DNA of 30,390 bases from a virus. Shown piece after piece: positions 1,356-30,386 of the stretch. The notes under the pieces are model-generated. The model saw nothing but the letters and a program-made list of their open reading frames with translations, did no database searches and was not told where the DNA came from. A program made the translations under genes and the position numbers. Where the stretch lies: positions 1-30,390 of IMG/VR virus record IMGVR_UViG_3300032420_000098. The stretch is one strand, 5' to 3'. Positions within the stretch are counted from its first letter, which is position 1; the number at the start of each line of letters is the position of its first letter.

Positions 1356-2270
1356 ATGTCCAACGAACAGCTTGCAGACCTGACCCAGCCCCAGCGCGAC
1401 CGGCTTGCGTTTATTGAGTTGCGCCTGCGCTTCATCGGAGAGATTCGTCGTCAAGACCTGGTGTCGCGTTTTGGCATCCAGGCAGCAGCAGCGACCCGGG
1501 ACATCGGGATCTACAAGGATCTCGCCCCGGGCAACCTGGACTACGACACCAAAAACAAGGTGTACGGGTACGCGGACGGCTTTACGCCTGTCTTTGATTT
1601 CCCGGCAGAGCGAGTATTAGCGTGGCTGTCGCAGGGCTTCGGTGATGGCGAGCCTTCCGCCCTCAAGTCCTGGATTACCTGTGAGATCCCCTCCCGGCTC
1701 ACAAAACCAGGGCTCGACACGCTCGCATGTGTCACCCGGGCCATCCACCAGGAGCGCCCCCTCAAGGTCATCTACCACTCCCTGTCGAGTGGCGAGACTG
1801 AGCGCGAGATCGTCCCCTTTGCGTTGATCGACAACGGCCTGCGCTGGCATGTCCGAGCCTTCGATCGACGCAGCAAGGATTTCAGGGACTTTGTCATCAC
1901 GCGCATGCAGCGCACGGCGATGCTGAAAGACCGCGACGTTCTGCCACACGAAAAAAGTGACCAGGACATCCAGTGGACCCGGATCGTGGAACTGGAACTG
2001 GTGCCGCACCCCGATCAACCGCGTCCCGAGATCGCGGAGATGGATTACGGCATGACTGGCGGCATGGTGAAGATGAAGCTCCGTGCAGCGACTGCCGGCT
2101 ACATCTTGCGGAAGTGGAGCGTCGACTGCTCCGCAGATCACGGTCTTCGCGGACCTGAGTACAGGCTTTGGCTCAAGGACCACTTGGCGTTGTACGGCGT
2201 AAAAAACGCCGTGCTGGCACCAGGGTATGCGACCTTGGATGCGGCCCGGGCAGGAGCGGAATGTGACTGA
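1356..2270 (+). CDS. brxR: BREX transcriptional regulator BrxR (WYL domain)
   Basis: A 304-residue protein. The N-terminus (about 10-75) looks like a winged helix-turn-helix ('RLRFIGEIRRQDLVSRFGI' ... 'ATRDIGIYKDL'). A WYL domain follows at about 130-190 ('RPLKVIYHSLSSGETEREIV', 'ALIDNGLRWHVRAFDRRSKDF'), then a C-terminal WCX-like extension. Size, architecture and position as first gene of the operon match BrxR, a family of dimeric repressors that bind inverted repeats upstream of BREX operons and are thought to sense a ligand through WYL. Autoregulation of the promoter at 1278-1306 is therefore likely. The Shine-Dalgarno is weak (only CCAGG immediately before the ATG), which suggests low expression. 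Confidence 0.88.
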   Translation: MSNEQLADLTQPQRDRLAFIELRLRFIGEIRRQDLVSRFGIQAAAATRDIGIYKDLAPGNLDYDTKNKVYGYADGFTPVFDFPAERVLAWLSQGFGDGEPSALKSWITCEIPSRLTKPGLDTLACVTRAIHQERPLKVIYHSLSSGETEREIVPFALIDNGLRWHVRAFDRRSKDFRDFVITRMQRTAMLKDRDVLPHEKSDQDIQWTRIVELELVPHPDQPRPEIAEMDYGMTGGMVKMKLRAATAGYILRKWSVDCSADHGLRGPEYRLWLKDHLALYGVKNAVLAPGYATLDAARAGAECD

Positions 2271-2317
2271 ACAATGGCTACCACTGCCGGCGCCGGTCGC
2301 GTCGGTAGAACAAACGA

Positions 2318-4180: not shown

Positions 4181-4208
4181 ACAGACAAAAGAACCCTGGG
4201 ACATACCT

Positions 4209-16341: not shown

Positions 16342-16349
16342 TGTATAGA

Positions 16350-16408
16350 CAGTGTTGAGTGAGTTTGGCCGCGATGCGATTCAGCAGACGTATGGATGAC
16401 CAACACTG
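16350..16408. repeat. 8-bp inverted repeat between brxL and the nuclease-helicase gene
   Basis: CAGTGTTG (16350-16357) and CAACACTG (16401-16408) form a perfect inverted repeat around 43 bases in the 118-base gap. There is no T-tract, so it is not a standard terminator. It could be an operator, a long hairpin or chance. Confidence 0.3.
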
Positions 16409-16459
16409 CTACCTCATCGATCACATGCAATTCGTCGAGTTTTTCTGGAAATAGAATTT

Positions 16460-19400
16460 ATGCCGAGCACTGCGAAAAAAAGTATCTCCAAAAGCGCCCT
16501 GTCCATGTTCCTCCGGACAAAGTGTGATCGAGAACTCTACTTGTCCTTGCATGAGGATTCTGAGCTTGCGACACACAGCATGCCAGTTCCGTTGCAGGCT
16601 CGACCAGGAATTGGTGTTCTGCAAACGGCAGGACGGGACTTTGAGGATGAACGCAATGATCAATTGATACAGGCGTTCGGCAGCTTGGTCATATATCAGC
16701 CCGAAAAGGGAGCGACCAAGCCGGTTAAGGCTCCGCTCGCCACGCTGCTTGGCAAGGTTACAGCACTCCCCGCAATCCTCTTGCAAGGGAAATTCGACCA
16801 TTCGACCTTTCAGAACACGGTCTTGACGAACATCGGTCTTGATGCCGTTCAAACCGCCCAGGTTCCTCCAATTGCTGGACTCATTCCAGACATCATTGTT
16901 GTGCGCCAGGCTGTAGTCGATGATGAAGAAGTCGGTGCAAACGGCTGTCGCAGACACATTGACATCACTACAGAGACGCGTCACGCACTGAGCATCATTG
17001 ATGTCAAGCATACGAGCGAGGCTAACCCGAGCTATTCGGCAGAAGTCGCGCTTTACGCCATCTTCTTGGCTAACTGGATCGCTGACCAAGGGATGCAGAA
17101 CAAATACTTCGTAACGATACGCAGCTATTTGTGGACTCGCTTCAAACAAGGGAAGTCAGCACTCGATGCATTAATGACTGTGACGACGACCGCAACTCCG
17201 GATCAATATCTTGATGCGCTTATTGCTGACAGCGAGGATGCCAACCTTCGTTTCTATTTGCCAACAGTGCTCCATTTCTTCAGGGAGGATTTGCTTCGAG
17301 TTATCACCATCGGTGATGCATCAGCTAATGGCTGGCAAGATCTGGAATGGCATGTCGATGGCCGCTGCAGCTCGTGTGACTGGCTTGGGCACGAAAAATG
17401 GGCAAACCCGAAGGATAAAGCCAAAATTGCTGCACAGCCCACACACTATTGCTACCCAGCAGCAAAATTGACAGGGCATCTGAGTCAGATCGCGGGTATG
17501 ACTCGCGGTGCAAGAAAGACGCTCCAAATTAACGCGATTCAGGATACGGCGAGCGCCGCAAGTACGCCGTCAGCACATCCAGCTTTTCAGCAGCACAGCC
17601 ATCTCAAGAAGGAGCGCAGTCGTATTCCGGCTCGTGCTCAAGCGTTGATAGCATCGACGACGACGGTCGACAATGCAGCGGTTCTGGCAAGCCTGGCACC
17701 ATGGCCGCAATTGCACGTGGCTATTACCGTCAACTTCGATCCGAGTGCAGGACTTCTTACTGGCTTATCAATATTTGGAAGAGCAACGGCCTATGTGAGC
17801 GGACAGACCCCGCGACAATTCGCCACGAAGTGCTTTGTCGTGGACCAGAAAAGTCTCGCCGACGAATGGGTTGCTCTTGAGGGACTGCTATCAACGCTGT
17901 CCGACATGGTCGATCAGGCCGAGGCATTCGTTCGCGCCGCCGGGAAAACACCCCTCACTGCTCAAGTCGCATTCTGGGAAAAGCGCCAGTTCGAGGAGTT
18001 GTGCGGCGCGATGGGTCGCCATTTGCCAAGAGTACTGAACCTCACCAACCGCAAGACCAAGGCGCTGGCATGGCTCTTTCCTGCCGATGAGCTGATAGAG
18101 AAGCCAGATGGTGCGGTTAGTCCTTGCGTTGTGTTTGTTGACGAAATCGTTCGGCGAGTTGTTTTCGCGCCGACTCCTCATGTCATCACTCTATTTGATA
18201 CCGCCGAAACCTACTACTCCGGTCCAGGTCCGATTCGGCAGGGTGATGCCTTCTATCGTGAGTTCCTGACTAACGGTATTCCGAGAGAGCGCATCTACGA
18301 GATCTGGAGCAATGTGACCACGATCAAGCGCGGCTCGGTCACTGTCCCTCGAAATACTGTCATTCAAGAATTCGGTAACGCGCTCGAAAAGCAATGTCGG
18401 GCGTTGAACAGTGTTGTCGAAAAGCTCCGTACGGATTTCAGAGGTCAACTTAAGGCGAATGCGCCAAAGCTAACTCTCTCGATTCCACAAGGAACCCGCG
18501 ACGTAGCCTTCGATAGCAAGCTTTGGGTGTGGTGGGAAGAGCTTCAGTATCACACCAGGAAGTTGGAGTCTCATCAGCGCCTGGCGCTTGATGCCGAAGC
18601 GTTGGAAGCGAGCTATGAGGCGGTTCGCCTTACCAACGGGCTCCCGACAGCATTGCTTAATGAATATGTGTTTGACGTGTTGGCAGGATCAACTGAAGCA
18701 AAACTCGACGACACTGAAGGCTACCTTGCTCTAGGAAAAGAGGGGAATCCTGGCCTCCCTCTGCAGCGAGCACGAGACATCATTGCGACCGGTGCACCTG
18801 CGTATTCAGGCTCGGACCAGACCCTCACCACGCCATTGTGGTCGGCACTGTCTGTCAATCTCGTGTCGTTCGACCGAAGCACCCGCAAGGCCGTATTGAG
18901 GTTGTCTAACTGGCGAGAGCCGGCGTTTTTTCCGTACCTTCTTGCTAATTCAACGATTGATCTGATGAACGATATCTTCATCACCAAGGGGCAGGGTTCA
19001 TTCAAGTGGTATGAAACGGCAAAAGCGATTTTGACTGCCGTCGGCAATCCCTCGATTGCGGTTGCCGACAGCAACGCGGCGGTGGCCATGGGTGCCAGGA
19101 CGCCGAGGGCTGGCTCAGATGCCGTCACTCCACTCGCGCGAGTGCTTTGGACGGCTGATGCTGTTCATGGAACGTCCGTCGTTGCATCGACCGAAGCAGC
19201 ATCAATCGCCGTATATGCCAGAACCAGGCACAATCTGAACAGCAGTCAGACAGATGCCGTGGCCCATGCCGCAGAGAAAGGGCTGACGATCATTTGGGGC
19301 CCACCTGGAACAGGGAAGACCCAGACCCTTGCTGGCTGCATTCATGGCTTAGTCCATGACGCCGTGCAGCGCGGCCAGCCATTAAAGTTATTGGTGGCCG

Positions 19401-20713
19401 GGCCCACCTACAAGGCAGTGGAAGAACTCATTGGTCGAGTGGTAAGTTCTTTGGACAGCGACACGACCTGCCCAGCCGAAGTATTCATCGCGTACTCGTC
19501 GTCACAATCCCCACGATCCTTCGTTGCAACGAGCGCTCACCTGCGGGTGGAGTCCTTCAATCTGCATCAAAGTAACCAAGAGACTCAGGATTGCCTCAGC
19601 AGCCTGGCGAAAACGGATGTCGTCACGATCGTCGCTACATCAACAATGCAGTCCTACAAGCTCTCCGAATGGACATGCGCTCGATACGTTGGGCCAATTT
19701 TCGACGTTGTTATCGTCGACGAAAGTTCTCAAGTTCAATTGACCACGGCGATTTCGCCTTTGGCAACATTGAAAGAAGATTCTCGTTTGATCATTGCAGG
19801 AGATCATCTCCAAATGCCACCGATAATGGCGCTTGAGCCGCCTGTCGGCGCGGAATACTTGGTGGGCAGCATCCAGAAATACCTACTCACCAGACCATTT
19901 GCCGGCAAGATTAATACGTGCCCGCTCGAAGAAAACTACCGATCAGCGGAAGACATTGTTGCCTATGCGCGAACGATCGGGTATCGAGCAACGCTCCAAG
20001 CTTCAAACCCGGCAACGGCACTCCATTTTCTAGCCGCAGTGCCAACACCGGCAACGGGCTTTCCGATATCTCTACCCTGGTCTTCTCTATGGCCGCAAGC
20101 CCTGGATGCGGACAAGAAAGTATTGGCGCTTCTGCATGACGACGATCTTTCGTCGCAGAGCAACTCGGTTGAGGCAAAAATTGTCGCGGCGCTGACCTGG
20201 TGTCTGAAAAATACCGTGAGCGCTGAGCTCGATGGACGAGGCGCTGCCACTCACACTTCACCTGCACCTGATCAGTTCTGGGGTCAGTGCATCGGTATTG
20301 TCACTCCGCACAGAGCACAGCGTGCGCTGGTGGTACGCGAGCTAAGGGCGATTTTCCCTACTGACCCGCCCGAACTGATCGACTCAGCGGTTGATACCGT
20401 AGAAAAGTTCCAAGGTGGCCAGCGGCACACCATCATCGTCACTTTCGGAGTTGGTGATGCCGACGTGATAATGGGCGAGGAGGCATTCCTCATGCAGCTC
20501 GAACGCACCAACGTGGCGATTTCACGCGCAATGGCCAAATGCCTGGTGATCATGCCTATGACTCTTGCGGGGCACGTACCGCAGGACAAGAAAGCGCTCG
20601 AGACGGCACACGCCATCAAAGACTACGTCGATGAGTTCTGCAATCACGAAATTGTGGATCAAATCATGTCTGGGCCGACGTCAAAGCAAGCGAAGCTGCG
20701 TTATCACCGGTAG
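16460..20713 (+). CDS. Cas4/Dna2-like Fe-S nuclease fused to SF1 helicase
   Basis: A 1417-residue fusion. The N-terminal part is a PD-(D/E)xK nuclease of the TM0106/RecB-Cas4 group: 'IPDIIVV' (D about 145), 'IIDVKHTS' (D-V-K about 185-187) and a following 'AEVALYAIFLANW' helix. C22, C303, C306 and C331 match the split four-cysteine Fe-S cluster of Cas4, AddB and Dna2. The C-terminal third is an SF1 helicase of the Upf1/Dna2 type: GPPGTGKT (947-954), 'VDESSQ' (D1087), 'LEENYRS', 'VEKFQGGQ' and 'ERTNVAISRA'. Such enzymes unwind and cut DNA. The start has only a weak Shine-Dalgarno. Composition is less GC-rich than the BREX core, suggesting separate acquisition. It may be a BREX accessory or a stand-alone defence gene. 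Confidence 0.82.
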   Translation: MPSTAKKSISKSALSMFLRTKCDRELYLSLHEDSELATHSMPVPLQARPGIGVLQTAGRDFEDERNDQLIQAFGSLVIYQPEKGATKPVKAPLATLLGKVTALPAILLQGKFDHSTFQNTVLTNIGLDAVQTAQVPPIAGLIPDIIVVRQAVVDDEEVGANGCRRHIDITTETRHALSIIDVKHTSEANPSYSAEVALYAIFLANWIADQGMQNKYFVTIRSYLWTRFKQGKSALDALMTVTTTATPDQYLDALIADSEDANLRFYLPTVLHFFREDLLRVITIGDASANGWQDLEWHVDGRCSSCDWLGHEKWANPKDKAKIAAQPTHYCYPAAKLTGHLSQIAGMTRGARKTLQINAIQDTASAASTPSAHPAFQQHSHLKKERSRIPARAQALIASTTTVDNAAVLASLAPWPQLHVAITVNFDPSAGLLTGLSIFGRATAYVSGQTPRQFATKCFVVDQKSLADEWVALEGLLSTLSDMVDQAEAFVRAAGKTPLTAQVAFWEKRQFEELCGAMGRHLPRVLNLTNRKTKALAWLFPADELIEKPDGAVSPCVVFVDEIVRRVVFAPTPHVITLFDTAETYYSGPGPIRQGDAFYREFLTNGIPRERIYEIWSNVTTIKRGSVTVPRNTVIQEFGNALEKQCRALNSVVEKLRTDFRGQLKANAPKLTLSIPQGTRDVAFDSKLWVWWEELQYHTRKLESHQRLALDAEALEASYEAVRLTNGLPTALLNEYVFDVLAGSTEAKLDDTEGYLALGKEGNPGLPLQRARDIIATGAPAYSGSDQTLTTPLWSALSVNLVSFDRSTRKAVLRLSNWREPAFFPYLLANSTIDLMNDIFITKGQGSFKWYETAKAILTAVGNPSIAVADSNAAVAMGARTPRAGSDAVTPLARVLWTADAVHGTSVVASTEAASIAVYARTRHNLNSSQTDAVAHAAEKGLTIIWGPPGTGKTQTLAGCIHGLVHDAVQRGQPLKLLVAGPTYKAVEELIGRVVSSLDSDTTCPAEVFIAYSSSQSPRSFVATSAHLRVESFNLHQSNQETQDCLSSLAKTDVVTIVATSTMQSYKLSEWTCARYVGPIFDVVIVDESSQVQLTTAISPLATLKEDSRLIIAGDHLQMPPIMALEPPVGAEYLVGSIQKYLLTRPFAGKINTCPLEENYRSAEDIVAYARTIGYRATLQASNPATALHFLAAVPTPATGFPISLPWSSLWPQALDADKKVLALLHDDDLSSQSNSVEAKIVAALTWCLKNTVSAELDGRGAATHTSPAPDQFWGQCIGIVTPHRAQRALVVRELRAIFPTDPPELIDSAVDTVEKFQGGQRHTIIVTFGVGDADVIMGEEAFLMQLERTNVAISRAMAKCLVIMPMTLAGHVPQDKKALETAHAIKDYVDEFCNHEIVDQIMSGPTSKQAKLRYHR

Positions 20714-20720
20714 CGATTGT

Positions 20721-20741
20721 GTCGAGCTAAATGCGCTCGAC
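20721..20741. terminator. Hairpin between convergent genes
   Basis: A 7-bp stem, GTCGAGC (20721-20727) with GCTCGAC (20735-20741), and a 7-base loop lie in the 13-base gap and the last codons of the methyltransferase gene. No T-tract follows on either strand, so it is at best a weak bidirectional terminator or a block to convergent read-through. Confidence 0.35.
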
Positions 20742-21872
20742 GTGAAAATCAAACTCGACGGCAGCGGCAGAATCAGTCTTCATCTGATCTGCTTGCCGCT
20801 TTCCTGCATCGGCTGAAGCGGCAGCGCGAACTGAAACCAATCGCCACTTGATACCAGACTCCTCGAGGGAGTTCTTGAATAGTTCCTTCACGTTGACTGC
20901 AGAGGAAGGAATGATTCCAAACCTAACATACATCTCCAGTCGATCGGAGGAAATGCTCGAAGTATTCCTCCATACCGATCCAAGAGATCTGGCAAATACA
21001 TCTTTCCCGCCGTGATTTAGTTGGGGGCCTGCCGCATAGTCAATTTCGCTAGGGCCTCCTAAAAACCAGTTTCTCAACCACTGATCTTGTACATATGTTC
21101 GCATGCCGTAATACGGGGGGGATGTGACTACTAGAGATGGCTTGGCGTTGATTGCATCGTAGGAATCCGCCTCTTGTGAGTCGCCCTGGAACACTTGGAG
21201 AATGGAGTTCGGTGACGTGAAGCTCAGCCCTGTTAGGCGCGCAATTTTTCGCCGTAGAACCGTTATGACGTCAAGCTTTGGAGCCTTTAGACCCCTTTCT
21301 TTCCAGTAGCGAACTGCGTAGTCCGGCTTTGATGCATAGGTCCTCGGCATTTGATTGGAGAAGTACCCAGCGTTCGTGAGGTCCTTTGGCAAGGGGCCGT
21401 GTAGGCATCCTAGTGCAGCGGCGCGAAGTATTGCGGATGCGTCAGAATCCTCAGGTAGCACCAATAAAGCCTCTCTTAACTTACACAGATCGCGAAGCGT
21501 CTGCTGATGGTATGCGTGCTTGAAAAATGGACTCTTAGGAATATCGATGGGATCAGTGCTTGCAATCAGATCTTCCGCAAGTGCAATAGGATCTTCGATA
21601 TCGCAAGAGGCCAGCTTGGCTTTCGCAATCGCCACTGCAACAGGCGACGAATCAATTCCCCACGCATTCATCCCCAGGTTTCGGGCAGCAAATAGAGTTG
21701 TGCCCCGGCCGCAGAATGGGTCGAGCACGACTGGGTTGTCCTTTTTGTGTTTCTTGAGCACTCGCAGCGGATACTCGAGCGGAAACATCGTGAAATAAGG
21801 ACAGATTGCGTTCAGCGCATTTTCTTTGCTATATGCCAGGGCCACTTTATGGGGTCTTGTGTTGTCGGTCAT
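20727..21872 (-). CDS. TSPPY-type site-specific DNA methyltransferase
   Basis: A 381-residue protein. SAM-binding motif I is 'LDPFCGRGTT' at 50-59 with an acidic 'GIDSS' about 15 residues on, and catalytic motif IV is TSPPY at 250-254. The family uses SPPY for N4-cytosine or, less often, N6-adenine methylation; the target cannot be read from the sequence. The motif I before motif IV order, and the 'PYFTMFPLEYPLRVL' lead-in, fit the stand-alone SPPY methylases. It is convergent with the nuclease-helicase gene and on the same strand as the prophage genes, 49 bases downstream of the lysozyme. Its composition resembles the nuclease-helicase more than the phage genes. It could be an orphan or protective phage methylase, or the modification half of a defence pair. 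Confidence 0.85.
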   Translation of the reverse strand: MTDNTRPHKVALAYSKENALNAICPYFTMFPLEYPLRVLKKHKKDNPVVLDPFCGRGTTLFAARNLGMNAWGIDSSPVAVAIAKAKLASCDIEDPIALAEDLIASTDPIDIPKSPFFKHAYHQQTLRDLCKLREALLVLPEDSDASAILRAAALGCLHGPLPKDLTNAGYFSNQMPRTYASKPDYAVRYWKERGLKAPKLDVITVLRRKIARLTGLSFTSPNSILQVFQGDSQEADSYDAINAKPSLVVTSPPYYGMRTYVQDQWLRNWFLGGPSEIDYAAGPQLNHGGKDVFARSLGSVWRNTSSISSDRLEMYVRFGIIPSSAVNVKELFKNSLEESGIKWRLVSVRAAASADAGKRQADQMKTDSAAAVEFDFHVERI

Positions 21873-21921
21873 TTTCGGATATACGGCACAGTTTACCTTG
21901 GCTGCCTGTTGTAGGGAACGA

Positions 21922-22395
21922 CTACCTTGCTCCAGCTTCCATCGTCAGCAACATAAATTCGGCATCTCGTCGAACCACTAATCCCGGCAGCACCTTCCCG
22001 CCCCCGTAGACCCAGCGCCGCAGCTCCTGGCCCGCACCATGCCAGTCCCGCTGATTGATCCGCCGCCGCAGCGTCGACGTCTGAAGTCGCCCCGCGCCGA
22101 GGTTGAAGGTGAAATCCACGATGGCCGCGAGACGTCCCCCTGACTCCGTGGCCAGCAGCGGGCAATAGCGCAGTGTGGCGTTGAGTGCAGTCGTCAGGTC
22201 TTGCGCCAGATAGAGCTCTGCTTCGCCCTCGGTGATCGGCGGATGCTTTGGGTTGCAGAGGTGGCCGTAACCGATGGTCCAGTAGCCAGCGGAGCAGATG
22301 TAAGGGTGAGCCCGGCCAGGGTCGAGCTTCGGCACGCGGTGGAATCCTTCGAACCGCTTCGCCAGGACGATGGCGGCATGGGGAATCTTGCTCAC
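21922..22395 (-). CDS. Phage lysozyme (GH24 endolysin)
   Basis: A 157-residue T4-type lysozyme (muramidase) that cleaves the peptidoglycan sugar backbone at the end of the lytic cycle. The catalytic Glu is E16 in 'KRFEGFH'. The family block 'AGYWTIGYGH' supplies T40, and the position usually held by Asp is C34, giving an E-C-T triad of the kind known in active endolysins. The E-to-C spacing is 17 residues instead of the usual 8, because of an insertion around 'PKLDPGRAHP'. There is no signal peptide or N-terminal membrane anchor, so export must depend on the holin. It begins with GTG overlapping the holin stop (GTGA). Confidence 0.88.
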   Translation of the reverse strand: MSKIPHAAIVLAKRFEGFHRVPKLDPGRAHPYICSAGYWTIGYGHLCNPKHPPITEGEAELYLAQDLTTALNATLRYCPLLATESGGRLAAIVDFTFNLGAGRLQTSTLRRRINQRDWHGAGQELRRWVYGGGKVLPGLVVRRDAEFMLLTMEAGAR

Positions 22396-23224: not shown

Positions 23225-23575
23225 TCAGATCGCGACGCCTGAACTCCAGCCGGCAACCTTGTAGGCCGACAGCACGGCTTCGTCCTCGATGAAGCACAGC
23301 CAGCCAATCTTGGGAACGTAATACTCCCAGGCGCTCGCCACGCGCACGGCGATCTGGTTGGTCTTGCCGACCCAAACTCCTGTAGCGGCGGCCGGCACGA
23401 TGTACCGATCGCCATCGACGGGACTCGCGGGCGGCGTGGTCAGATCCCGGTCCTTGACCGAGAGTCCGACGATTGCGCCGACGCGCTTCAAGTTGCTATC
23501 CATGCTGGAGTTCCAGCCAGACTCACCCAAGGCCCAGCCGTAGGTGAGTCCGAGATTGGGATCAGTGCTTGCCAT
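23225..23575 (-). CDS. DUF2793 phage protein
   Basis: A 116-residue protein of the DUF2793 type: 'KRVGAIVGLSVKDRDLTTPP' followed by 'VDGDRYIVPAAATGVW' and 'WEYYVPKIGWLCFIEDE'. These domains occur in tail-associated or receptor-contacting phage proteins, often as part of tail fibres. I start it at 'MASTDPNLGLTYG', whose ATG overlaps the tail-tip gene's stop by one base. An upstream in-frame start would add 25 Arg-rich residues that overlap the previous gene and look like a frame shadow. It is the last gene of the tail operon. Confidence 0.72.
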   Translation of the reverse strand: MASTDPNLGLTYGWALGESGWNSSMDSNLKRVGAIVGLSVKDRDLTTPPASPVDGDRYIVPAAATGVWVGKTNQIAVRVASAWEYYVPKIGWLCFIEDEAVLSAYKVAGWSSGVAI

Positions 23576-25785
23576 CAGATGCCTCCGTAGTATTTGCCGT
23601 AGTTGAGCCCGAAGCCAGCGCGATCGAAACTGCGCGTCTGCCGTTGCCAACTGGCATAGCCATCGCGCACCGCTTCGACTTCGATCTTGAGTTTTCCATT
23701 GAGGCGGCCCAGACCACTGTCGGTTGCCTCGTCGGCGACGAGATAAGTCCAGGAGGTCGTGGCGATGCCGGTGACGGTTTTTCGGAGAGCGCCGCTCTCG
23801 CCATAGACCCGGATCGTGTAGGTGGTGCCTGGCTCGGGGCCGATGTTGGCCTCAGACTGCGTCACCAGATACACCGTCTGCTGCATCCGATCACGGAAGG
23901 ACCAAGTGATTGATGCCTGGCCAAGAAGGACCGTCGGCCACATTACGTTGTTGACCTTCACGTTCCCCGGCGGATAGGGCCGGATCATCCGCCCGGCAAA
24001 GGTATAGCTGTCTGCGGGTGCGGCCGATTCTGCCAAGCGTCCGAGACCGGTGGCGGGCAGCATCTTCACCTGCAGTGTTTCAGCAGAGAGGTACTGCTCC
24101 GTGATCAGCGCTTCTACCGCGTCAGCAAACCAGAGGCGCGCCGCTGCCAGATGCGTTGCTGGTACTGTATCGAGGACACCCCGATCCACCGTGACCGTGC
24201 CGGCCACCAGGTTGATCGCCTTGACCGCCACGATCTCGTTGTCGAGATAGGCAATGGTGTCGAGTTTCACAACGTCCAGGTCCTGCCCATTACCAATGGC
24301 GAGTACCGTGGCCTGTTCGTCAATGGCATTGGTGACCGTTGCATTGGGCGTAAAGCCCATCGTTTCGACTTCGGCGTAGGCGGCACTGCCCTGGCGGGTC
24401 AGCAGTTTGACGTTAAGCGAGTCACCCGAAGGCCGGCTGGCACAGGCGATCAGAAAGCCGCCCTGGGGGTCGAGTTCGGCGCGTGCCGTGGCCGACTCCC
24501 CGACCAGTCGTTTGACCACCGACCACCAAGGCGCTTCCGCCAGTCGGCGAAACGGCACCGGGGCGGGTGACGTCAGTGGGGATATCCACGAGGTCGGCGT
24601 CGGCAAAACATAGGAGGCCGATGGCAGGCCGAAGATATCTTCCACACACTCGATCCGCACCCGGCCATCGGTCAGCGTGCCGTAGGAGATGCGCACCACC
24701 CGCATCACCAGCTGCGCGATGCCAAACTCGGGCCAGGTGAATTTGAATACGTCGCCGATGTTGAGGTTGGCGGCCTTGCGATTGGCAATGAGCGTGGCCT
24801 TGGCCAGTGGCACCGAGAGTTGCTTGAGGTCCCCCAGCGCGACCCGCGAAGCGAGGCTGCCATTGGTAATCCCCGGATAATCAACCGTCGCCGAGGACAC
24901 CACGCCACCCGCCAGTTCCAGCGCGGCCAAATCATGCACCGTGATGGCGGCATCCTTGTCGGTGCTGCGATCGCGATAGCGCACGGTGACCTGATTGATC
25001 AGTTCCGATTCCGCCGGTCGCGAGAAACTCTCCAGTTCCAGAATGTTCGACGCATCGAGCACCAACAAACTGGCTACGGTGTAGTCCGCCCGGGCGAGTT
25101 TCAGAACAAACTTCCCGGTGCGGGGATGCACATAGAGGGTGCCGTCGATATGTCGCAGCACCTCGGCGATGAATTCCTCCAGGGGCTGCTCACGATCCCA
25201 CAAGATCGACAGACCGTACTGCTCCGAGGCCAGCGTATTGGCCGAGGTCTGGAAACTGGTGGCATCGATCTCACTTGCCGCGTATCCGAGACCCCACGTC
25301 GCGTTGTTCAGAGACTCGTAGATGATGTGCGCCGGGTTGGCGTCATTGCTGATGTTGCCACCACCCAGGGCCGCCGGTGCGGGAATGCGCCGCGCTTCGA
25401 CGCTCCATGGCTTGACATAAGGGTTCATGCTGGAGAGCAGACATTGCTGGGCGATCAGCGACACCACACCCCGGAAAGCGGGAATCACACTGCCGAGTTT
25501 CTGCTGCAGGTAGCCGGAAACAGTTTCTGCCGGCCCACCCATCTTGATCTCGACGTAGCCCTGGACGCCACCCTCGCGGGATTCGCCACCGAAGAGTTCC
25601 GGCGCGTTGACGTAGATCGTCTGGGAGGACGTGATGCTGCCACTCCAGGCCGTGCGCTCGCCGACGATGATGCGCGTCACCGCATCCACCGGCCCGTGGC
25701 AGAGCGCCAGGTGCAGGCCGGCGTAGTAGCGATGGCCGACGACATAGGTGGAGGAACCGCCACCGCCTTTCCCGCCGCCGCCCAT
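23575..25785 (-). CDS. Phage tail-tip / host-specificity protein (J-like)
   Basis: A 736-residue protein. The Gly-rich start 'MGGGGKGGGGSS' and 'YYAGLHLALCHGPVDAVTRI' are typical of Phage-tail_3 (tail-tip, J-like) proteins. The middle ('VTVRYRDRSTDKDAAITV', 'LNIGDVFKFTWPEFGIAQLVMRV') matches baseplate-hub-like repeats, and the C-terminal part looks like fibronectin-type beta domains. It probably forms the central tip that contacts the host cell. It directly follows the small 68-residue gene (its ATG abuts that stop) and precedes the DUF2793 gene. A very long open frame exists on the opposite strand, but it has no sensible product. Confidence 0.85.
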   Translation of the reverse strand: MGGGGKGGGGSSTYVVGHRYYAGLHLALCHGPVDAVTRIIVGERTAWSGSITSSQTIYVNAPELFGGESREGGVQGYVEIKMGGPAETVSGYLQQKLGSVIPAFRGVVSLIAQQCLLSSMNPYVKPWSVEARRIPAPAALGGGNISNDANPAHIIYESLNNATWGLGYAASEIDATSFQTSANTLASEQYGLSILWDREQPLEEFIAEVLRHIDGTLYVHPRTGKFVLKLARADYTVASLLVLDASNILELESFSRPAESELINQVTVRYRDRSTDKDAAITVHDLAALELAGGVVSSATVDYPGITNGSLASRVALGDLKQLSVPLAKATLIANRKAANLNIGDVFKFTWPEFGIAQLVMRVVRISYGTLTDGRVRIECVEDIFGLPSASYVLPTPTSWISPLTSPAPVPFRRLAEAPWWSVVKRLVGESATARAELDPQGGFLIACASRPSGDSLNVKLLTRQGSAAYAEVETMGFTPNATVTNAIDEQATVLAIGNGQDLDVVKLDTIAYLDNEIVAVKAINLVAGTVTVDRGVLDTVPATHLAAARLWFADAVEALITEQYLSAETLQVKMLPATGLGRLAESAAPADSYTFAGRMIRPYPPGNVKVNNVMWPTVLLGQASITWSFRDRMQQTVYLVTQSEANIGPEPGTTYTIRVYGESGALRKTVTGIATTSWTYLVADEATDSGLGRLNGKLKIEVEAVRDGYASWQRQTRSFDRAGFGLNYGKYYGGI

Positions 25786-25992
25786 TTACACGGTCTCCTG
25801 TTGTGCTTCGGTCTGCTGTTCCATCTTGTCCGCGAGGCGGCTCGCCATCGCATCTCCCGTGGCGCGCAACCAATCGGTCGTCACACCGTTCTGGCGAAAG
25901 TCATCGAAGCTCACGCCTTCACGCGGGAACCACTTGCGCAGTCCCGCATTGCAATAGCCGAAGGCCTTGGCGTCGTCGTGCGTCACAATCAT
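25786..25992 (-). CDS. Small phage tail-module protein
   Basis: A 68-residue protein, 'VTHDDAKAFGYCNAGLRKWF' then 'GDAMASRLADKMEQ'. The 'GYCxxGxRxxFxxxG' pattern recurs in small proteins next to tail-tip genes of many prophages. The function is unknown; a tail assembly role is inferred from position. Its ATG overlaps the previous stop (ATGA) and its TAA abuts the tail-tip ATG. Confidence 0.7.
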   Translation of the reverse strand: MIVTHDDAKAFGYCNAGLRKWFPREGVSFDDFRQNGVTTDWLRATGDAMASRLADKMEQQTEAQQETV

Positions 25993-26228
25993 TTCTTGCC
26001 TCCACTGCCCGACGATTGGCGAATCTCGGTGGTTTTGACGTCGCCGTACCAGACCACATTGGCCTGTCGGATGACACGCGTGCCGAACAACACCGGAATG
26101 GCTTTGCCGGATTCCGCCACCGGCACATCAAGATTGCCGGGGGTCGGGGCGAGCGGTTTTGGCGGTCGCGGCGTGAGCAATGCGCCGATGACCGTGGTGA
26201 TGACCCAGACGAGGATTTGTGCCCACAT
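25989..26228 (-). CDS. Small phage tail-module protein with N-terminal hydrophobic segment
   Basis: A 79-residue protein. A hydrophobic stretch at the start ('ILVWVITTVIGALL') is followed by 'PRPPKPLAP' and then 'GKAIPVLFGTRVI' and 'ANVVWYGDVKT'. The latter motifs resemble the N-terminus of larger tail-tip proteins, so this may be a split-off or partner piece of the tail tip. GAGGG seven bases before the ATG supports the start. Function inferred only from context. Confidence 0.65.
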   Translation of the reverse strand: MWAQILVWVITTVIGALLTPRPPKPLAPTPGNLDVPVAESGKAIPVLFGTRVIRQANVVWYGDVKTTEIRQSSGSGGKK

Positions 26229-26238
26229 GATTCAGCCC

Positions 26239-27036
26239 TCAGACAATCGAATCCCCGGCGAAGGGGTTCTTGACGGGAATCCAGGGAAACCCGCCGAAGT
26301 TGAGGCTGTTGCCGAACTTGCTCTGGCAGGTGGCAAACGTCCGGTCACAGCCGGCAAAGGCTTCAAACGCCGAGCCCACGGCTATACCCGGCAGCACCGC
26401 CGAGAGCGTGACCGTGTCCCCGGAGTGATTGGTGATCATGCGTGGCACGCCGCCGACCCGGAGATAGCCGCCCGTCAGCCAGCCGGTGGCCTGCGAGAGC
26501 AAGGCGCTGGACGTCACGTTCAAGCCCGACAGCGCACCCACGGTGCCGGCCACCTTGTAGGCTTGGTTGTTCATCCCGCAGCCGGGATCGAACAGCGCAT
26601 GGCGGCAACCGGTCTGGTAGTGGGCGCGCAAGCCGGGCCGTTTCAGGGCCGTAAATATCGACTCGCAGCGAATTTTCGCGGTACTGCCGCTGAACACCAC
26701 GGAGGCCACACGCCCCTTCCACCATGTGATGTACTCGGCGTCGCCCAGATGGTTGCGAAACAGCGTGATCGACACCACGCCATTGGGTCGTGCCGCCGCG
26801 AAGAGTTGCGCCACCGCAAAGTCGCGGGCGCATTCGAGGTCAATGCCGTTACGGGCAAAGTCGGGCGACTGCTCAACGGCCGAGCGGCGGATCACGGCGG
26901 GTTGATAGCTCTCAACCTGATAGGTGATGACATCCCGGGCACTCGTCACGGTCCACACCTGCTGACCGAGGACGAAGCGGTAAAGCTCGACCGGCTGGCC
27001 CGCGGCTAACGACGTTTCCTGTGTGGTGTAGGTCAT
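26239..27036 (-). CDS. Phage BR0599 / DUF2163 family protein
   Basis: A 265-residue protein. The C-terminus 'CDRTFATCQSKFGNSLNFGG' and 'FPWIPVKNPF', the pair 'HALFDPGCGMN', and N-terminal beta-rich sequence ('ELYRFVLGQQVWTVTSA') match the BR0599/DUF2163 family of tail proteins found before tail-tip genes and related to gene-transfer-agent tail components. The conserved cysteines may bind metal; this is family lore, not shown here. The ATG overlaps the stop of the preceding 562-residue protein's gene (ATGA) on the same transcript. Confidence 0.82.
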   Translation of the reverse strand: MTYTTQETSLAAGQPVELYRFVLGQQVWTVTSARDVITYQVESYQPAVIRRSAVEQSPDFARNGIDLECARDFAVAQLFAAARPNGVVSITLFRNHLGDAEYITWWKGRVASVVFSGSTAKIRCESIFTALKRPGLRAHYQTGCRHALFDPGCGMNNQAYKVAGTVGALSGLNVTSSALLSQATGWLTGGYLRVGGVPRMITNHSGDTVTLSAVLPGIAVGSAFEAFAGCDRTFATCQSKFGNSLNFGGFPWIPVKNPFAGDSIV

Positions 27037-28721
27037 GCTTTCACACTCCGCATCGGGACGGACGCTTCCGCTACGCTATCCGTCTGCCAGTTGATCTCGA
27101 TCTGGTCGGCGTCGAGCCGGGTCTTTTCCAGAAAGTAGATTGCGAGCCAGTCTTCGGGGTTGGCATCGAAGCCGAAGGACTGGTTGATCGTCATCACTTC
27201 TTCTTCACCGGTGGTGCCTGAACCAAAACTCAGGATCGTGCGGAAATACCAGGAGCCGTTCTTGTAGAGGAACGCGGCTTCGGTGCGCCCCGGCATCGGA
27301 TTGAAATAGAGCGCATAACCGCGCGAGGCCACCGTCATCACGGTCTGGTTCGAGAGAATTCTCTGGGTCGGAACGAGGGAGGCTTCCCAGGTCGGATGCC
27401 AGAACGCGGTCAAGCGACCCTGGCGGGCGGTTAGCCAGCCCTTGAAGGCGGCGATCTCGGCGCGGCTCTTGAAGATGTAGTCGAACGAGCGGTGCACGAA
27501 GGGACGCGCGGCGTGATCATCCACCGCCGTGATGCCTGTGTCGAAGTCCAGTACCTCGGCCAGTCGCAAATAGTCGGCATCGACATTGCGGACGCGGTTG
27601 GGACGGGTGATCCAGACCGGGGTGGAATTGAAGGTGGTTGCCGACTCCTGCTTCGTAATGGTCGTGGTGCCGGCGATATCGAATACGAGGCGCGCCGTGG
27701 CGATGGCATCCGTCACCCGGGAGACCGCCTGCGTCACTCGTAGTCGGGCGGTGCGGGATGGCGTGACAAACGCGCCTGCTGGCCAAGATTGCAGCAACGG
27801 TTGCTTCAAGGTCACGGCATTGCTCGCCACCGACAGCACTTCGGCCGCCTCCGTGTTGCGGCTGTCGGAACCAATTACCAGCAGCCCATCAGCCTCGTAT
27901 TCCAGGTTTGTGGTGGTCAGCGGAATCACCGTGCTGCCGGCCGTCACCGGGGCGGTCAGGACGCCTTTGTCGGGCCAGATGGGGAGTGCATAGACTCTGG
28001 ATTGCCAGGCCGACAGCAACACGTCCAGCAGTGCAGCATCGCTGCTACCCACCAGGATCGAGAACTCCAGCGAGCGGCGCGGCTTGGCCCGTAGACTGAC
28101 GCGCTGCTCGGATCCGTCGCGGGCGGTGAGCACGTCGGTGGTCCACATCAAACGTTCCAGCCAGCCATCCGTCCAGTTGGGTTTCAGGCCGAACACCACC
28201 ACCCGCCGCCCGGAGATGGACAGGGTCGGGGCTTCATTCGGAAACTGGAAAGTAAAATCTGCTTCGATCACCGGTGGCCCGTCGAGGCTCACCGACACGT
28301 TGTGTAGCCGCGATTCGAGCATGCCGTAGGTGGTCGGTGGATTCGCCGGGGCAGCGAGCGTGATACCGCCATCGTTCTCGCCGATGACCGCCGACAAGTT
28401 CTGCGGCGAGAAGTGGGCATTCCAGACCTCGACCTGGCGCATTTGCGTGGAGAGCAGATTACCCAGCGCGATCTTGGCCGGCAGCAGATGGACGTGGTGG
28501 TACCAGTCCTGCTCGAATTGGCGCACCCTGTTTCCCGAGAAGACGGAAACGATCTCGCTGACCGGCAGGTTATTGGTCTTTGCGCCCGCATTTGGCGGGT
28601 TGTTGGCCAACGCTCCTGCATAGGGCTGTGTCAGGGGCGCCGGCAGGAACTTGTAGGCATTACCGTAGCCAGGATTGGCCGGCAACCCGGACGGTAGGAT
28701 GGCTCCGGCGTAGGTCGTCAT
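27033..28721 (-). CDS. Large phage tail protein, family not recognised
   Basis: A 562-residue, probably beta-rich protein. Visible stretches include 'FEQDWYHHVHLLPAKIALG' and 'FTFQFPNEAPTLSISGRR' in the N-terminal half, and 'NRVRNVDADYLRLAEVLDFD' and 'TAFWHPTWEASLVPTQRIL' in the C-terminal half. I cannot name a family with certainty. Its position directly before the BR0599-type gene, with four-base overlaps to both neighbours, makes a distal tail or tail-assembly role likely. There is no signal peptide, membrane segment or catalytic motif. Confidence 0.7.
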   Translation of the reverse strand: MTTYAGAILPSGLPANPGYGNAYKFLPAPLTQPYAGALANNPPNAGAKTNNLPVSEIVSVFSGNRVRQFEQDWYHHVHLLPAKIALGNLLSTQMRQVEVWNAHFSPQNLSAVIGENDGGITLAAPANPPTTYGMLESRLHNVSVSLDGPPVIEADFTFQFPNEAPTLSISGRRVVVFGLKPNWTDGWLERLMWTTDVLTARDGSEQRVSLRAKPRRSLEFSILVGSSDAALLDVLLSAWQSRVYALPIWPDKGVLTAPVTAGSTVIPLTTTNLEYEADGLLVIGSDSRNTEAAEVLSVASNAVTLKQPLLQSWPAGAFVTPSRTARLRVTQAVSRVTDAIATARLVFDIAGTTTITKQESATTFNSTPVWITRPNRVRNVDADYLRLAEVLDFDTGITAVDDHAARPFVHRSFDYIFKSRAEIAAFKGWLTARQGRLTAFWHPTWEASLVPTQRILSNQTVMTVASRGYALYFNPMPGRTEAAFLYKNGSWYFRTILSFGSGTTGEEEVMTINQSFGFDANPEDWLAIYFLEKTRLDADQIEINWQTDSVAEASVPMRSVKA

Positions 28722-29476
28722 TTCAGGAATCCGTATCCGCCATAACTCATGCTGAAGACCATCCAGTCACTGCCGCCCAACGTCACCACATCCTTGTTCA
28801 CGTATTGCCCGTTGATGCGCAGCAGACGCACGCCTGGCGCATAGCCCATCATCGAATAGAAGTTGCTCGGGGTTGGGCGTCCCACTTCAACCGTGGCCGG
28901 ATAGAGCGGCGTGACACCGTTAAACGCAATCGGCGAGTAACTGTCGAGGCCCCGGGTGGTCGCGTTATAAAAGGAGCGCACGCCATCGACGCCCGATGTG
29001 CCGGCTTTCCACTTGTTGGTGTTGCCGTCGATATCTGCCCGCACAGAGTTGCTGTAGGTATCCGAAAGGAAGGCGCCGCCGGTGAACGTGCAGGTCTTGG
29101 TAATCGCGCCGAAGATGATTGGCGCATAGGTAGTGCTCGCCGTCTGTGCGACGCAATAACACCAGCCGTCGCCACCGAAGAGAAAATACTCGGCGCTGCC
29201 TGACATCTGCGACAGGGAGTAAGTGCCTGAGGGGACGGTTTGCGACCCGTAGGCCAGTCCGCTGCTGAAATTGGTCGACCCGTAGCACGAGACGCTGCTC
29301 GCGTAGGAATGCAGATTGACGAACTGTCCGGTCGCAGCATGTTGGAGATGCAGGCGGAAATACCCAGCATCCGCCTGATACATCAGTTGCGTATAGCCGC
29401 AGGAGCCGGTGGCAAAGAGCCGGATCTTGTCGAGCAGGTCGTTGGGTGAGGTGGTGACGCCGGATTGGAAGGCCAT
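28718..29476 (-). CDS. Tail-associated protein, paralogue of the next upstream gene
   Basis: A 252-residue protein. The N-terminus 'MAFQSGVTTSPNDLLDKI' and the middle 'SAEYFLFGGDGWCYCVAQT' correspond to 'MAFTSGTATDYLDLLNRL' and 'AMPYWIVANGRRIVMVAKT' in the neighbour, so the two look like diverged copies. I chose the second of two adjacent ATGs: it fits the AGGAGG spacing better and matches the paralogue's MAF start. Proteins of this type sit between tape-measure and tail-tip genes in many prophages; their structural role is unclear. Confidence 0.7.
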   Translation of the reverse strand: MAFQSGVTTSPNDLLDKIRLFATGSCGYTQLMYQADAGYFRLHLQHAATGQFVNLHSYASSVSCYGSTNFSSGLAYGSQTVPSGTYSLSQMSGSAEYFLFGGDGWCYCVAQTASTTYAPIIFGAITKTCTFTGGAFLSDTYSNSVRADIDGNTNKWKAGTSGVDGVRSFYNATTRGLDSYSPIAFNGVTPLYPATVEVGRPTPSNFYSMMGYAPGVRLLRINGQYVNKDVVTLGGSDWMVFSMSYGGYGFLK

Positions 29477-29505
29477 CATGCCTCCTGACGGGCCGTCCCG
29501 AAGGA

Positions 29506-29539
29506 GGCCTCAGTTGCAAATGAGGCCCCCTCGGGGGGC
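29506..29539. repeat. Two adjacent hairpins between paralogous tail genes
   Basis: The first is a near-perfect palindrome, GGCCTCA (29506-29512) to TGAGGCC (29521-29527) around TTGCAA with one mismatched pair. It overlaps the second by three bases: GCCCCC (29525-29530) with GGGGGC (29534-29539). No clean T-tract follows, so termination is doubtful. Such GC-rich hairpins are common in intergenic DNA of some betaproteobacteria, which hints at the host. Confidence 0.55.
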
Positions 29540-29579
29540 AGCGAGCAGATTATGCGAGCGTGGGGGTTCATCATTGACC

Positions 29580-30386
29580 TCACGCGAGCTTCAAAGCCCA
29601 GTAGTCGCTGTAACCGGTGCGATACACGTCCTGCACCACCAGATGATCGACGCCACCGACGTTGATGATGTTTTCGACGGCATTGGCATATCCTGGAACG
29701 GCGTAGCAACCGTCCATTTCGCCCAGACCTATGTGGATGTACGGCAGGAGCGGATAGGAGCCGTCCGGGCATTCGCGCATGGTGCCGCCCCAAGTGTTCG
29801 GCCACATCGCCGATACGCCGGTCCAGACGCCAGTTGGCGAGTAGTACGCGCCCGAGTAACCGGAGGACTTTGGCAGATGGTTGCGATAGGTGTAGCTGTT
29901 GCTCCAGCGCGTCGGACTGTTGTAGGTCCCACCCACCAACAGTGGATACGGATACTGCGACGGTGTGGCGTAGGGCAGAAACAGCCCCAAGTGCATCATT
30001 TCGTAATACGTGCCGGTCTTGGCGACCATGACGATGCGACGGCCGTTGGCCACGATCCAATACGGCATGGCCGAGGCCATGAGCAACGCGTAGAACGTCC
30101 CGCTCGGGTTGTATTGGCCGTCGAAGGTCTGCACCGGATTCCAACCGACGAAGCCGCGAAGCTTCCAATTCCCGTAGTCGGCTCCCGCTTCGGACAGGAT
30201 GCCGACGTTGATCTGATCGGTGCCGGCGAGCCCGGGGCCTTGCAGCACCAGTTCGGCGGGCGGTCCGGGCACCCAGCGCAGCACCGACCAGCGTTCATTG
30301 GCCGGCAGCATGTCCTGCGTGACGAACTGCTTCAAGCGGTTCAGCAGATCAAGATAATCGGTGGCGGTACCACTGGTGAAAGCCAT
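29580..30386 (-). CDS. Tail-associated phage protein
   Basis: A 268-residue protein, complete within the window (ATG at 30384-30386, too near the edge to judge its Shine-Dalgarno). It has 'YWIVANGRRIVMVAKTGTYY' followed by 'LGLFLPYATPSQYPYPLLVG', a combination I have seen in tail-region proteins of other prophages. Aromatic-rich sequence and lack of signal or membrane segments suit a structural virion protein. It is the first complete gene of the leftward tail operon here, 103 bases ahead of its paralogue, with a palindromic spacer between. Confidence 0.7.
   Translation of the reverse strand: MAFTSGTATDYLDLLNRLKQFVTQDMLPANERWSVLRWVPGPPAELVLQGPGLAGTDQINVGILSEAGADYGNWKLRGFVGWNPVQTFDGQYNPSGTFYALLMASAMPYWIVANGRRIVMVAKTGTYYEMMHLGLFLPYATPSQYPYPLLVGGTYNSPTRWSNSYTYRNHLPKSSGYSGAYYSPTGVWTGVSAMWPNTWGGTMRECPDGSYPLLPYIHIGLGEMDGCYAVPGYANAVENIINVGGVDHLVVQDVYRTGYSDYWALKLA

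What the first reader, a model, noticed from the sequence alone, without database searches (positions are those of the whole stretch)
16460..20713. Fe-S nuclease-SF1 helicase fusion directly behind BREX
C22, C303, C306 and C331 together with PD...DVK make a Cas4/Dna2-type nuclease, fused to a full SF1 helicase, in the same orientation as BREX after a 118-base gap. It is not one of the six core BREX proteins. It could be a BREX accessory that degrades phage DNA, or an independent single-gene defence.
Basis: partly seen in the sequence, partly recalled or inferred. Interest (0 to 1): 0.55.

Follow-up and report, generated by a model that had tools for sequence, protein, structure and literature searches.

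The report
Nuclease-helicase paired with DNA methyltransferase
Behind a BREX phage-defence operon in a phage genome sits a large DNA-cutting, DNA-unwinding enzyme whose regular companion is not BREX but a DNA-methylating enzyme next to it, so the two probably form their own small, mobile restriction system that travels behind several different defence systems.

Summary
Window 16460-20713 (+) encodes 1417 aa: a Cas4/AddB/Dna2-type PD-(D/E)XK nuclease with four invariant cysteines, then a UPF1/Dna2-type SF1 helicase, 118 bases after brxL. BREX is not its regular partner: it lies behind BREX in 3 of 26 distinct loci collected, and in 0 of 12 distinct testable BrxL relatives in viral contigs. In three viral contigs with a related BREX and a related lysis-side flank, a 5.6-kb block holding this gene and the next one is cleanly missing. 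Conversely, in two type I RM loci the BREX block is replaced while this pair stays. What stays with it is the convergent DNA methyltransferase at 20727-21872 (-): immediate neighbour in 21 of 22 loci where that side is visible, down to 30% identity, on plasmids, in phages and on chromosomes, also where no RM or BREX was recognised upstream. Best reading: a two-gene, restriction-modification-like unit (ATP-driven nuclease plus protecting methylase) in a modular phage defence slot. Eight open-access paper searches and PADLOC did not show it. Anatomy and linkage are computed; restriction activity is inferred. New variant of a known kind; interest about 0.5.

The parts
16460..20713 (+). nuclease-helicase fusion, 1417 aa ('NucHel')
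   Evidence: ORF; Pfam; invariant active-site residues; fold
16460..17485 (+). residues 1-342: Cas4/AddB/Dna2-type PD-(D/E)XK nuclease with cysteines 22, 303, 306, 331
   Evidence: AF2 model; VIA Z 10.7 to Cas4, 8.3 to AddB; residues invariant in 19 of 19
17471..17665 (+). residues 338-402: helix-hairpin-helix-like stretch (weak model)
   Evidence: matches RadA (2bke, Z 7.7) and DNA polymerase iota; tentative; 'HhH' is a recalled label
17696..18088 (+). residues 413-543: RNase-H-like (DEDD exonuclease-like) stretch, activity unknown
   Evidence: RNase T Z 6.7-7.0; tentative
18590..19090 (+). residues 711-877: region matching the part of IGHMBP2 before its helicase core
   Evidence: 4b3f Z 7.0, 4b3g Z 6.6; tentative
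19211..20680 (+). residues 918-1407: UPF1/Dna2-type SF1 helicase
   Evidence: Pfam AAA_11/AAA_12; PDB profile hits; PADLOC DpdJ match
20727..21872 (-). DNA methyltransferase, 381 aa, convergent with NucHel, 13 bases between the two genes; DPFCGRGTT and TSPPY motifs
   Evidence: N6_N4_Mtase 3.9e-13; D51-P-x-C-G-R-G and S251-P-P-Y invariant in 11 of 11 sequences; partner in 21 of 22 loci
16342..21957 (.). about 5.6-kb block (NucHel + methyltransferase) cleanly absent in three viral contigs with a related BREX and related lysis-side flank
   Evidence: blastn of window flanks against L083, L086, L087
2228..16440 (+). BREX block, replaced by about 9.3 kb of type I RM + GmrSD in L059 and L061 while WYL, NucHel and methyltransferase stay
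   Evidence: blastn blocks; family hits
1356..2270 (+). WYL regulator at the left end of the exchanged block
   Evidence: PF13280; retained in the type I loci
359..1129 (-). DUF3223 gene at the left border of the slot
   Evidence: PF11523; 88% DNA identity in L061, 95% protein identity in L068
21893..22868 (-). two small phage genes at the right border (21893-22411 unknown; 22392-22868 PHROG 6637 of unknown function, lysozyme-like by eye)
   Evidence: conserved right border
23575..30386 (-). phage tail/structural genes: the slot lies in a phage or prophage
   Evidence: PHROGs tail and structural families

Best explanation
NucHel (16460-20713) and the convergent DNA methyltransferase (20727-21872) are one two-gene, restriction-modification-like defence unit. 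The methyltransferase marks resident DNA at its own site; NucHel, an ATP-driven SF1 helicase carrying a Cas4/Dna2-type (putatively Fe-S) nuclease, loads on incoming unmarked DNA or its ends, unwinds it and cuts the strands to pieces. The unit sits in a modular phage defence slot downstream of whichever methylation-based system (BREX, type I RM, type III-like RM) occupies it, and may be read from that operon. Shown here: nuclease and helicase anatomy, conservation of both active sites, linkage to the methyltransferase, independence from BREX. Inferred: the restriction reaction, its dependence on methylation, and the role of the methyltransferase as protector.
For: The methyltransferase is the immediate neighbour of NucHel in 21 of 22 distinct loci where that side is visible; in the 22nd (L072) it is 3.6 kb away behind a HerA-like and a 380-aa gene. 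It holds on two plasmids with 39-40% identical NucHel, behind gyrB in G134, in G1618 and at 30% identity (L053). A codirectional arrangement exists too (L051). A 25% relative split over two ORFs (L073) has a different 720-aa DNA methylase directly upstream, behind type I hsdR. Reciprocal search from the methyltransferase: 9 of 13 loci have NucHel beside it (two of the nine identical), 3 are cut at a contig end, 1 lacks it. The two proteins diverge together: r 0.83 for 19 loci, 0.96 without L046, 0 of 5000 permutations as high in either case. Present or absent as a unit: L083, L086, L087 lack exactly both genes, and 19 methyltransferases find nothing in them; in G1358 NucHel is a remnant of about 96 aa and no methyltransferase is found in the 30 kb fetched, while type I RM genes are there. 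Active sites invariant in 19 of 19. No promoter or terminator pattern at 16200-16600.
Against: No activity has been tested. L046 carries a different NucHel (40% identical) between a Res end 98% identical to L005's (56 aa visible) and a methyltransferase 92% identical to L005's, so the two genes need not match closely. The methyltransferase family also occurs without NucHel (L050 with a HerA-like gene; Allochromatium plasmid). The frameshifted AM1 copy has no methyltransferase in the 28 kb fetched. In 16 of 26 NucHel loci an RM or BREX system, or a relic of one, lies upstream (one more cannot be seen), so a joint role is not excluded.
Confidence: 0.6

Rival explanations
1. NucHel is an auxiliary effector for whichever methylation-based system lies upstream: BREX, type I or type III enzymes arrest or cut unmethylated phage DNA, and NucHel loads on the ends or forks and degrades it. 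The methyltransferase is a second, separate or regulatory modification.
For: BREX (3), type III-like (9, one a relic) and type I RM (4, of which one has only a NucHel remnant and one is the 25% relative with a methylase gene in between) lie upstream and co-oriented in 16 of 26 loci; the gap is 33-118 bases in the eight loci measured, and larger in L021. NucHel can be exchanged while both neighbours stay (L046). Auxiliary nucleases beside BREX are a described theme (PMC12839542, section 35, part 1 of 2 read).
Against: In 9 of 26 loci no RM or BREX system was recognised upstream. BREX stands in the same slot without it (L083, L086, L087). One NucHel type behind three unrelated systems speaks against a specific contact.
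Confidence: 0.25
2. Slot sharing only: the NucHel-methyltransferase pair, BREX and RM modules share an insertion slot in phages and have no functional tie to each other; the order reflects the slot's recombination borders.
For: Homology borders are sharp at gene ends: 16441 or about 16475 at the start of NucHel, about 21958 beyond the methyltransferase, 2227 at WYL.
Against: This concerns only the tie to BREX and RM, and is compatible with the best explanation; it does not explain the pair itself.
Confidence: 0.3
3. A phage-serving system: the methyltransferase protects the phage's own DNA from host restriction, and NucHel is a Dna2-like replication/recombination enzyme of the phage.
For: The window and several relatives are virus records or carry phage structural genes.
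Against: Also on rhizobial plasmids and behind gyrB; cleanly absent from otherwise related phages; in 50,697 phage records one hit only, helicase part only.
Confidence: 0.08

Closest known systems
Dna2 nuclease-helicase and UPF1/IGHMBP2-type SF1 helicases
   Same: N-terminal Cas4-like nuclease fused to a UPF1-type SF1 helicase (fold Z 7.6 to Dna2; helicase profile 1.2e-15 to Dna2, 4.3e-23 to SMUBP-2)
   Different: bacterial/phage, 1417 aa, with tentative HhH-like and RNase-H-like stretches between; paired with a DNA methyltransferase
TM0106 family RecB-like nucleases (TIGR03491), some annotated as bifunctional RecB nuclease/helicase fusions
   Same: 25% relative L073 matches TIGR03491 at 2.3e-7; the window matches an overlapping profile region at 0.24; two haloarchaeal plasmid helicase hits (H33, H39) are annotated 'bifunctional RecB family nuclease/DEAD/DEAH box helicase'
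   Different: window scores 10.3 bits against a cut-off of 97.45, so it is not a member by that test; 6 of 8 members scanned gave no TIGR03491 hit at all
Type I and type III restriction-modification
   Same: methyltransferase plus ATP-dependent motor with PD-(D/E)XK nuclease (recalled)
   Different: no specificity subunit; SF1 rather than SF2 motor; Cas4-type nuclease; two convergent genes
BREX auxiliary nucleases (PMC12839542)
   Same: a nuclease coded beside BREX core genes
   Different: the part read lists HNH, HKD, PD-(D/E)XK alone or fused (e.g. with SF2 helicase), TOPRIM/OLD, HEPN, PIN, Schlafen (section 35 part 1 of 2); 'Cas4', 'RecB' and 'Fe-S' do not occur in the main text held
Dpd (DpdJ), Mokosh (MkoA), Gabija (GajB) helicases
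   Same: SF1/UPF1-like helicase part (DpdJ 1.4e-39, residues 918-1407)
   Different: only the helicase part matches; three such plasmid helicases looked at are about 2,100-2,170 aa in other gene settings
P2/P4 prophage defence hotspots (PMC9122126) and recurrent nuclease-protease pairs (PMC12799240)
   Same: phage slot with interchangeable defence modules; a two-gene module recurring beside unrelated systems
   Different: those hotspots are about 1-5 kb; here the exchanged blocks are about 9 and 14 kb and the retained partner is a nuclease-methylase pair

Membership tests
Cas4/AddB/Dna2 Fe-S PD-(D/E)XK nucleases | order C ... PD ... DxK ... (Q/E)xxxY ... CxxC ... C with the four cysteines conserved (motif order recalled) | tested here: met
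   C22, PD143-144, D181xK183, E195xxxY199 (E for the usual Q), C303-C306, C331 identical in 19 of 19
Cas4/AddB/Dna2 Fe-S PD-(D/E)XK nucleases | fold | tested here: met
   VIA Z 10.7 and 10.0 Cas4, 8.3 AddB, 8.0 SSO0001, 7.6 Dna2; best rows for another part of the model 7.2 and 6.7; plain Foldseek gave no hit at E <= 0.001
Cas4/AddB/Dna2 Fe-S PD-(D/E)XK nucleases | bound 4Fe-4S cluster and nuclease activity | not testable with these tools
   needs purified protein
UPF1/Dna2-type SF1 helicase | AAA_11 and AAA_12 over curated cut-offs, Walker A and B intact | tested here: met
   81.1 and 61.1 bits against 27; K953, D1087, E1088 invariant
TM0106 family (TIGR03491) | score over curated cut-off 97.45 bits | tested here: not met
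   window 10.3 bits; L073 30.1 bits; no hit in 6 other members
BREX accessory gene | regular linkage to BREX | tested here: not met
   3 of 26 NucHel loci behind BREX; 0 of 12 distinct testable BrxL relatives in viral contigs have it, nor has the Thioflavicoccus plasmid BREX
BREX operon in the window | brxA, brxB, brxC, pglX, pglZ, brxL in order | tested here: met
   with brxE-family protein and WYL regulator upstream
Restriction-modification-like system | DNA methyltransferase gene linked to an ATP-driven nuclease gene | tested here: met
   21 of 22 loci
Restriction-modification-like system | restriction of unmethylated DNA relieved by the methyltransferase | not testable with these tools
   needs phage assays and a methylome
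Known PADLOC defence systems | full-length match to a system protein model | tested here: not met
   12 families match, all in the helicase part; best DpdJ, residues 918-1407 of 1417 (PADLOC-DB of 2023)

The most novel reading that the evidence does not exclude
The pair is a general partner module for methylation-based immunity: one nuclease-helicase plus its own methylase that plugs in behind BREX, type I and type III-like systems alike, takes the DNA they arrest or cut, and finishes it, while also able to act alone. It would supply a dedicated DNA-degrading arm to BREX, whose way of stopping phage is debated.
Probability: 0.2. Interest if true: 0.75.

Novelty: new variant of a known kind. 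Interest (0 to 1): 0.5.

Why it matters
It corrects the natural reading 'extra gene behind BREX = BREX accessory': the evolutionary partner lies on the other side and the other strand. If the inference holds, it is a compact, apparently undescribed restriction system with a Cas4/Dna2-type enzyme as the cutting part, not covered by PADLOC, and present or absent as a 5.6-kb block. Natural phages with BREX alone, pair with another system, and both give a ready set for testing whether the pair and BREX act independently or together.

Tried and rejected
Rejected: housekeeping enzyme. It was found in 1 to 5 genomes per 198-399 sampled, each count including the sample's seed genome (2 of 398, 1 of 385, 5 of 399, 2 of 369, 2 of 199, 1 of 198). 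Rejected: known PADLOC system. Set aside: longer helicases in Caulobacter, Methylobacterium and Skermanella plasmids, about 2,100-2,170 aa, by size like DpdJ (not scanned one by one) and in other gene settings, and a Chloroflexota one. Whether the RNase-H-like stretch is active could not be settled. For L046 I first thought of an exchange point inside the gene's last 325 bases; the protein profile does not support one.

Against my reading and kept: the L046 exchange; L050 and Allochromatium methyltransferase without NucHel; AM1 without methyltransferase; the frequent RM or BREX system upstream; upstream of L072 another defence-type gene (LmuA-like, 4.1e-15).

Limits of 'no RM or BREX recognised' (9 of 26): for L006 and L007 it rests on the record's annotation, for the others on tblastn with the window's BREX genes and the type I and type III-like genes of L005, L010 and L015, plus Pfam or PADLOC on selected upstream genes, not on every gene.

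Rows dropped before counting: repeated fetches of the same place (L004, L017, L018, L020, L022, L023-L037, L038-L042, L043-L045, L047-L049, L056-L067, L076, L077 where a larger piece was used); L055, L052 and L054 as NucHel loci because they are cut; 36 of 39 plasmid records, the further records and the one phage record, which match only the helicase part or were not opened; L095-L097, identical to L094 over the compared 7.6-8.1 kb; L085, with 243 bases after brxL, untestable.

Literature: 'not found' rests (open-access PMC only; only the listed top rows were seen). Seen: PMC12839542 outline, section 35 part 1 of 2 and a term search; PMC12799240 outline with abstract and opening; PMC9122126 and PMC11090510 passages; all others search listing only.
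Full report
What was checked. The window is a 30,390-base IMG/VR virus record. Its genes are: DUF3223 (359-1129, -), WYL regulator (1356-2270), brxE-family (2318-2833), brxA (2830-3624), brxB (3605-4180), brxC (4209-7841), pglX (7842-11717), pglZ (11714-14242), brxL (14239-16341), NucHel (16460-20713), then on the minus strand a DNA methyltransferase (20727-21872), two small genes and phage tail/structural genes to the end.

What the protein is. Helicase: Pfam AAA_11 and AAA_12 well over cut-off; nearest solved relatives by sequence are SMUBP-2, UPF1 and Dna2. Nuclease: invisible to Pfam, but an AlphaFold2 model of residues 1-550 (mean pLDDT 78) gives Cas4 (7mi4, Z 10.7, rmsd 3.7 over 196 residues; 8d3l, Z 10.0), AddB (4ceh, Z 8.3) and SSO0001 (4ic1, Z 8.0) over about residues 1-342; Dna2 (5eax) reaches Z 7.6, hardly above the rows for residues 414-548 (DNA polymerase alpha 7.2, RNase T 6.7). 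Plain Foldseek had no hit at E <= 0.001, so the fold rests on the second look plus the residue pattern. Between nuclease and helicase lie a helix-hairpin-helix-like stretch (338-402), an RNase-H-like stretch (413-543) and a region like that before the helicase core of IGHMBP2 (711-877), all tentative. A 25% relative, L073 (split over two ORFs), matches TIGR03491 (TM0106 RecB-like nuclease) at 2.3e-7 and the window touches an overlapping profile region at 0.24; six other members do not match. The protein is best described as a far relative of TM0106-type nucleases fused to a Dna2/UPF1-type helicase. In 19 of 19 sequences the putative Fe-S cysteines, the PD...DxK residues and the helicase motifs listed are identical.

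Who its partner is. I collected homologues from IMG/VR, GTDB contigs, plasmids, phages (none kept) and sampled genomes: 26 distinct places after removing repeats and helicase-only matches. Four cannot show an intact NucHel together with its 3' side: G821 (contig ends about 70 codons into NucHel), L073 (3' side cut), L008 (Methylorubrum AM1, frameshifted) and L079 (a remnant of about 96 aa). Of the other 22 (W, L003, L005, L006, L007, L009-L016, L019 with its 5' part cut, L021, L046, L051, L053, L070, L072, L074/L075 split over two contigs, L081) the methyltransferase is the immediate neighbour in 21, convergent in 20 and codirectional in L051; in L072 a HerA-like gene and a 380-aa gene lie between. 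L073 has another DNA methylase (720 aa) directly upstream. Searching from the methyltransferase, 9 of 13 loci have NucHel beside it (L048 and L049 are the same sequence), three are cut, one (L050) has a HerA-like gene instead. The two proteins diverge together (r 0.83, 19 loci; 0.96 without L046; 0 of 5000 permutations in each case).

What lies upstream, of 26: BREX in 3 (W, L016, G821); a type III-like set (UvrD-PDDEXK, DNA methylase, ResIII/TnsA-like; my label) in 9 (L003, L005, L014, L015, L021, L070; only the Res end visible in L046 and in L011, the latter by eye; a relic in L009); type I RM in 4 (L010 and L012 with GmrSD, distant L073, remnant L079); no RM or BREX recognised in 9 (L006, L007, L008, L013, L051, L053, L072, L074/75, L081); not visible in L019. 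Gaps are 33-118 bases in the eight loci measured. In G134 the pair lies directly behind gyrB.

Two exchanges that separate the pair from BREX. First, against the type I loci L059 and L061/L062 the window is homologous at the WYL gene (to 2227) and again from 16441 through the methyltransferase, while 2228-16440, the whole BREX block, is replaced by about 9.3 kb of type I RM plus GmrSD; against type III-like loci homology starts at about 16472-16477, at the NucHel start. Second, a search with BrxL in viral contigs gave 16 loci; four are one sequence and one is too short after brxL, leaving 12 distinct testable ones (one with only 536 bases to look at); none has NucHel, with window and further NucHel queries. 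In three of them (L083, L086, L087; BrxL 86-93%, PglZ 80-94% identical to the window's) homology to the window runs to the end of brxL (16339-16343) and resumes at about 21958 beside the same two small phage genes, so about 5.6 kb, NucHel plus methyltransferase, is absent. A BREX is thus seen without the pair and the pair without BREX in the same kind of phage slot.

How it most likely works. Shown: anatomy, intact active sites, purifying selection (dN 0.027, dS 0.37 against L016), tight pairing, presence or absence as a block. Inferred from the families: a DNA methyltransferase (SPPY-type motif, invariant in 11 of 11) that protects resident DNA, and an ATP-driven nuclease that destroys unprotected DNA. 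No promoter- or terminator-like pattern was found in 16200-16600, so NucHel may be read from the upstream operon; this is weak evidence. The strongest point against a closely matched pair is L046, where a 40% identical NucHel sits between a Res end 98% and a methyltransferase 92% identical to L005's. This favours either a nuclease that does not read the methylated site itself, or fast exchange of the nuclease under pressure from phage inhibitors.

Known work. Auxiliary nucleases beside BREX have been catalogued (PMC12839542; section 35 part 1 of 2 read); its main text does not contain 'Cas4', 'RecB' or 'Fe-S', and 'SF1' only in a reference. Prophage defence hotspots are known (PMC9122126, passages), as are two-gene modules recurring beside unrelated defence systems (PMC12799240, abstract and opening). 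I did not find this pair described in eight searches of open-access papers, which does not exclude subscription papers. Verdict: real, conserved and mobile; not a BREX part; a new variant of methylase-paired nuclease-motor systems.

Noticed in passing
L005:2535-9944 (also L003, L014, L021, L070): Co-oriented trio of UvrD-helicase/PDDEXK nuclease, type III-like DNA methylase and ResIII/TnsA-like protein directly upstream of NucHel; the ResIII/TnsA-like protein has no PADLOC hit. In L015 (and identical L004) the nuclease end of the first is fused to the methylase.
   Followed up: partly
L072:3689-12823 and L050:4865-8091: The same methyltransferase family stands beside a HerA-like ATPase (DUF87), in L072 together with NucHel and a 380-aa gene, in L050 without NucHel: a possible alternative motor for the methyltransferase.
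   Followed up: partly
L046:1320-7013: NucHel exchanged for a 40% identical version between a Res end 98% and a methyltransferase 92% identical to L005's.
   Followed up: partly
window:14239-16341: BrxL carries a C-terminal phospholipase-D-like domain (MIT_C, 5.8e-52), as in the HKD-nuclease BrxL variant described in PMC12839542.
   Followed up: no
L016:1473-5260 and L068:11635-15417: PglX is 81-84% identical to the window in its first half but about 50% or unmatched after it (in L016 over two ORFs), while BrxC, PglZ and BrxL are 97-98% identical: probably exchange of the DNA-recognition part.
   Followed up: no
L085:2722-4455 and L090:2734-4455: A distant GmrSD-type gene (24-25% identical to the L010 one) between pglX and pglZ of related BREX loci.
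   Followed up: no
L074/L075 (genome G134): The nuclease-methylase pair sits directly behind gyrB, next to recF- and dnaA-like genes, in a chromosome.
   Followed up: no
L078/L079 (genome G1358): Type I RM genes followed by a NucHel remnant of about 96 aa and no methyltransferase found.
   Followed up: partly
L007:10616-11755 and L080:13440-14582: Two stand-alone pairs (Rhizobium plasmid, genome G1618) have a gene of about 380 aa just upstream, each with a weak match to the end of a SoFic model; annotated in L007 as DUF1612 and helix-turn-helix, so perhaps a shared regulator.
   Followed up: no
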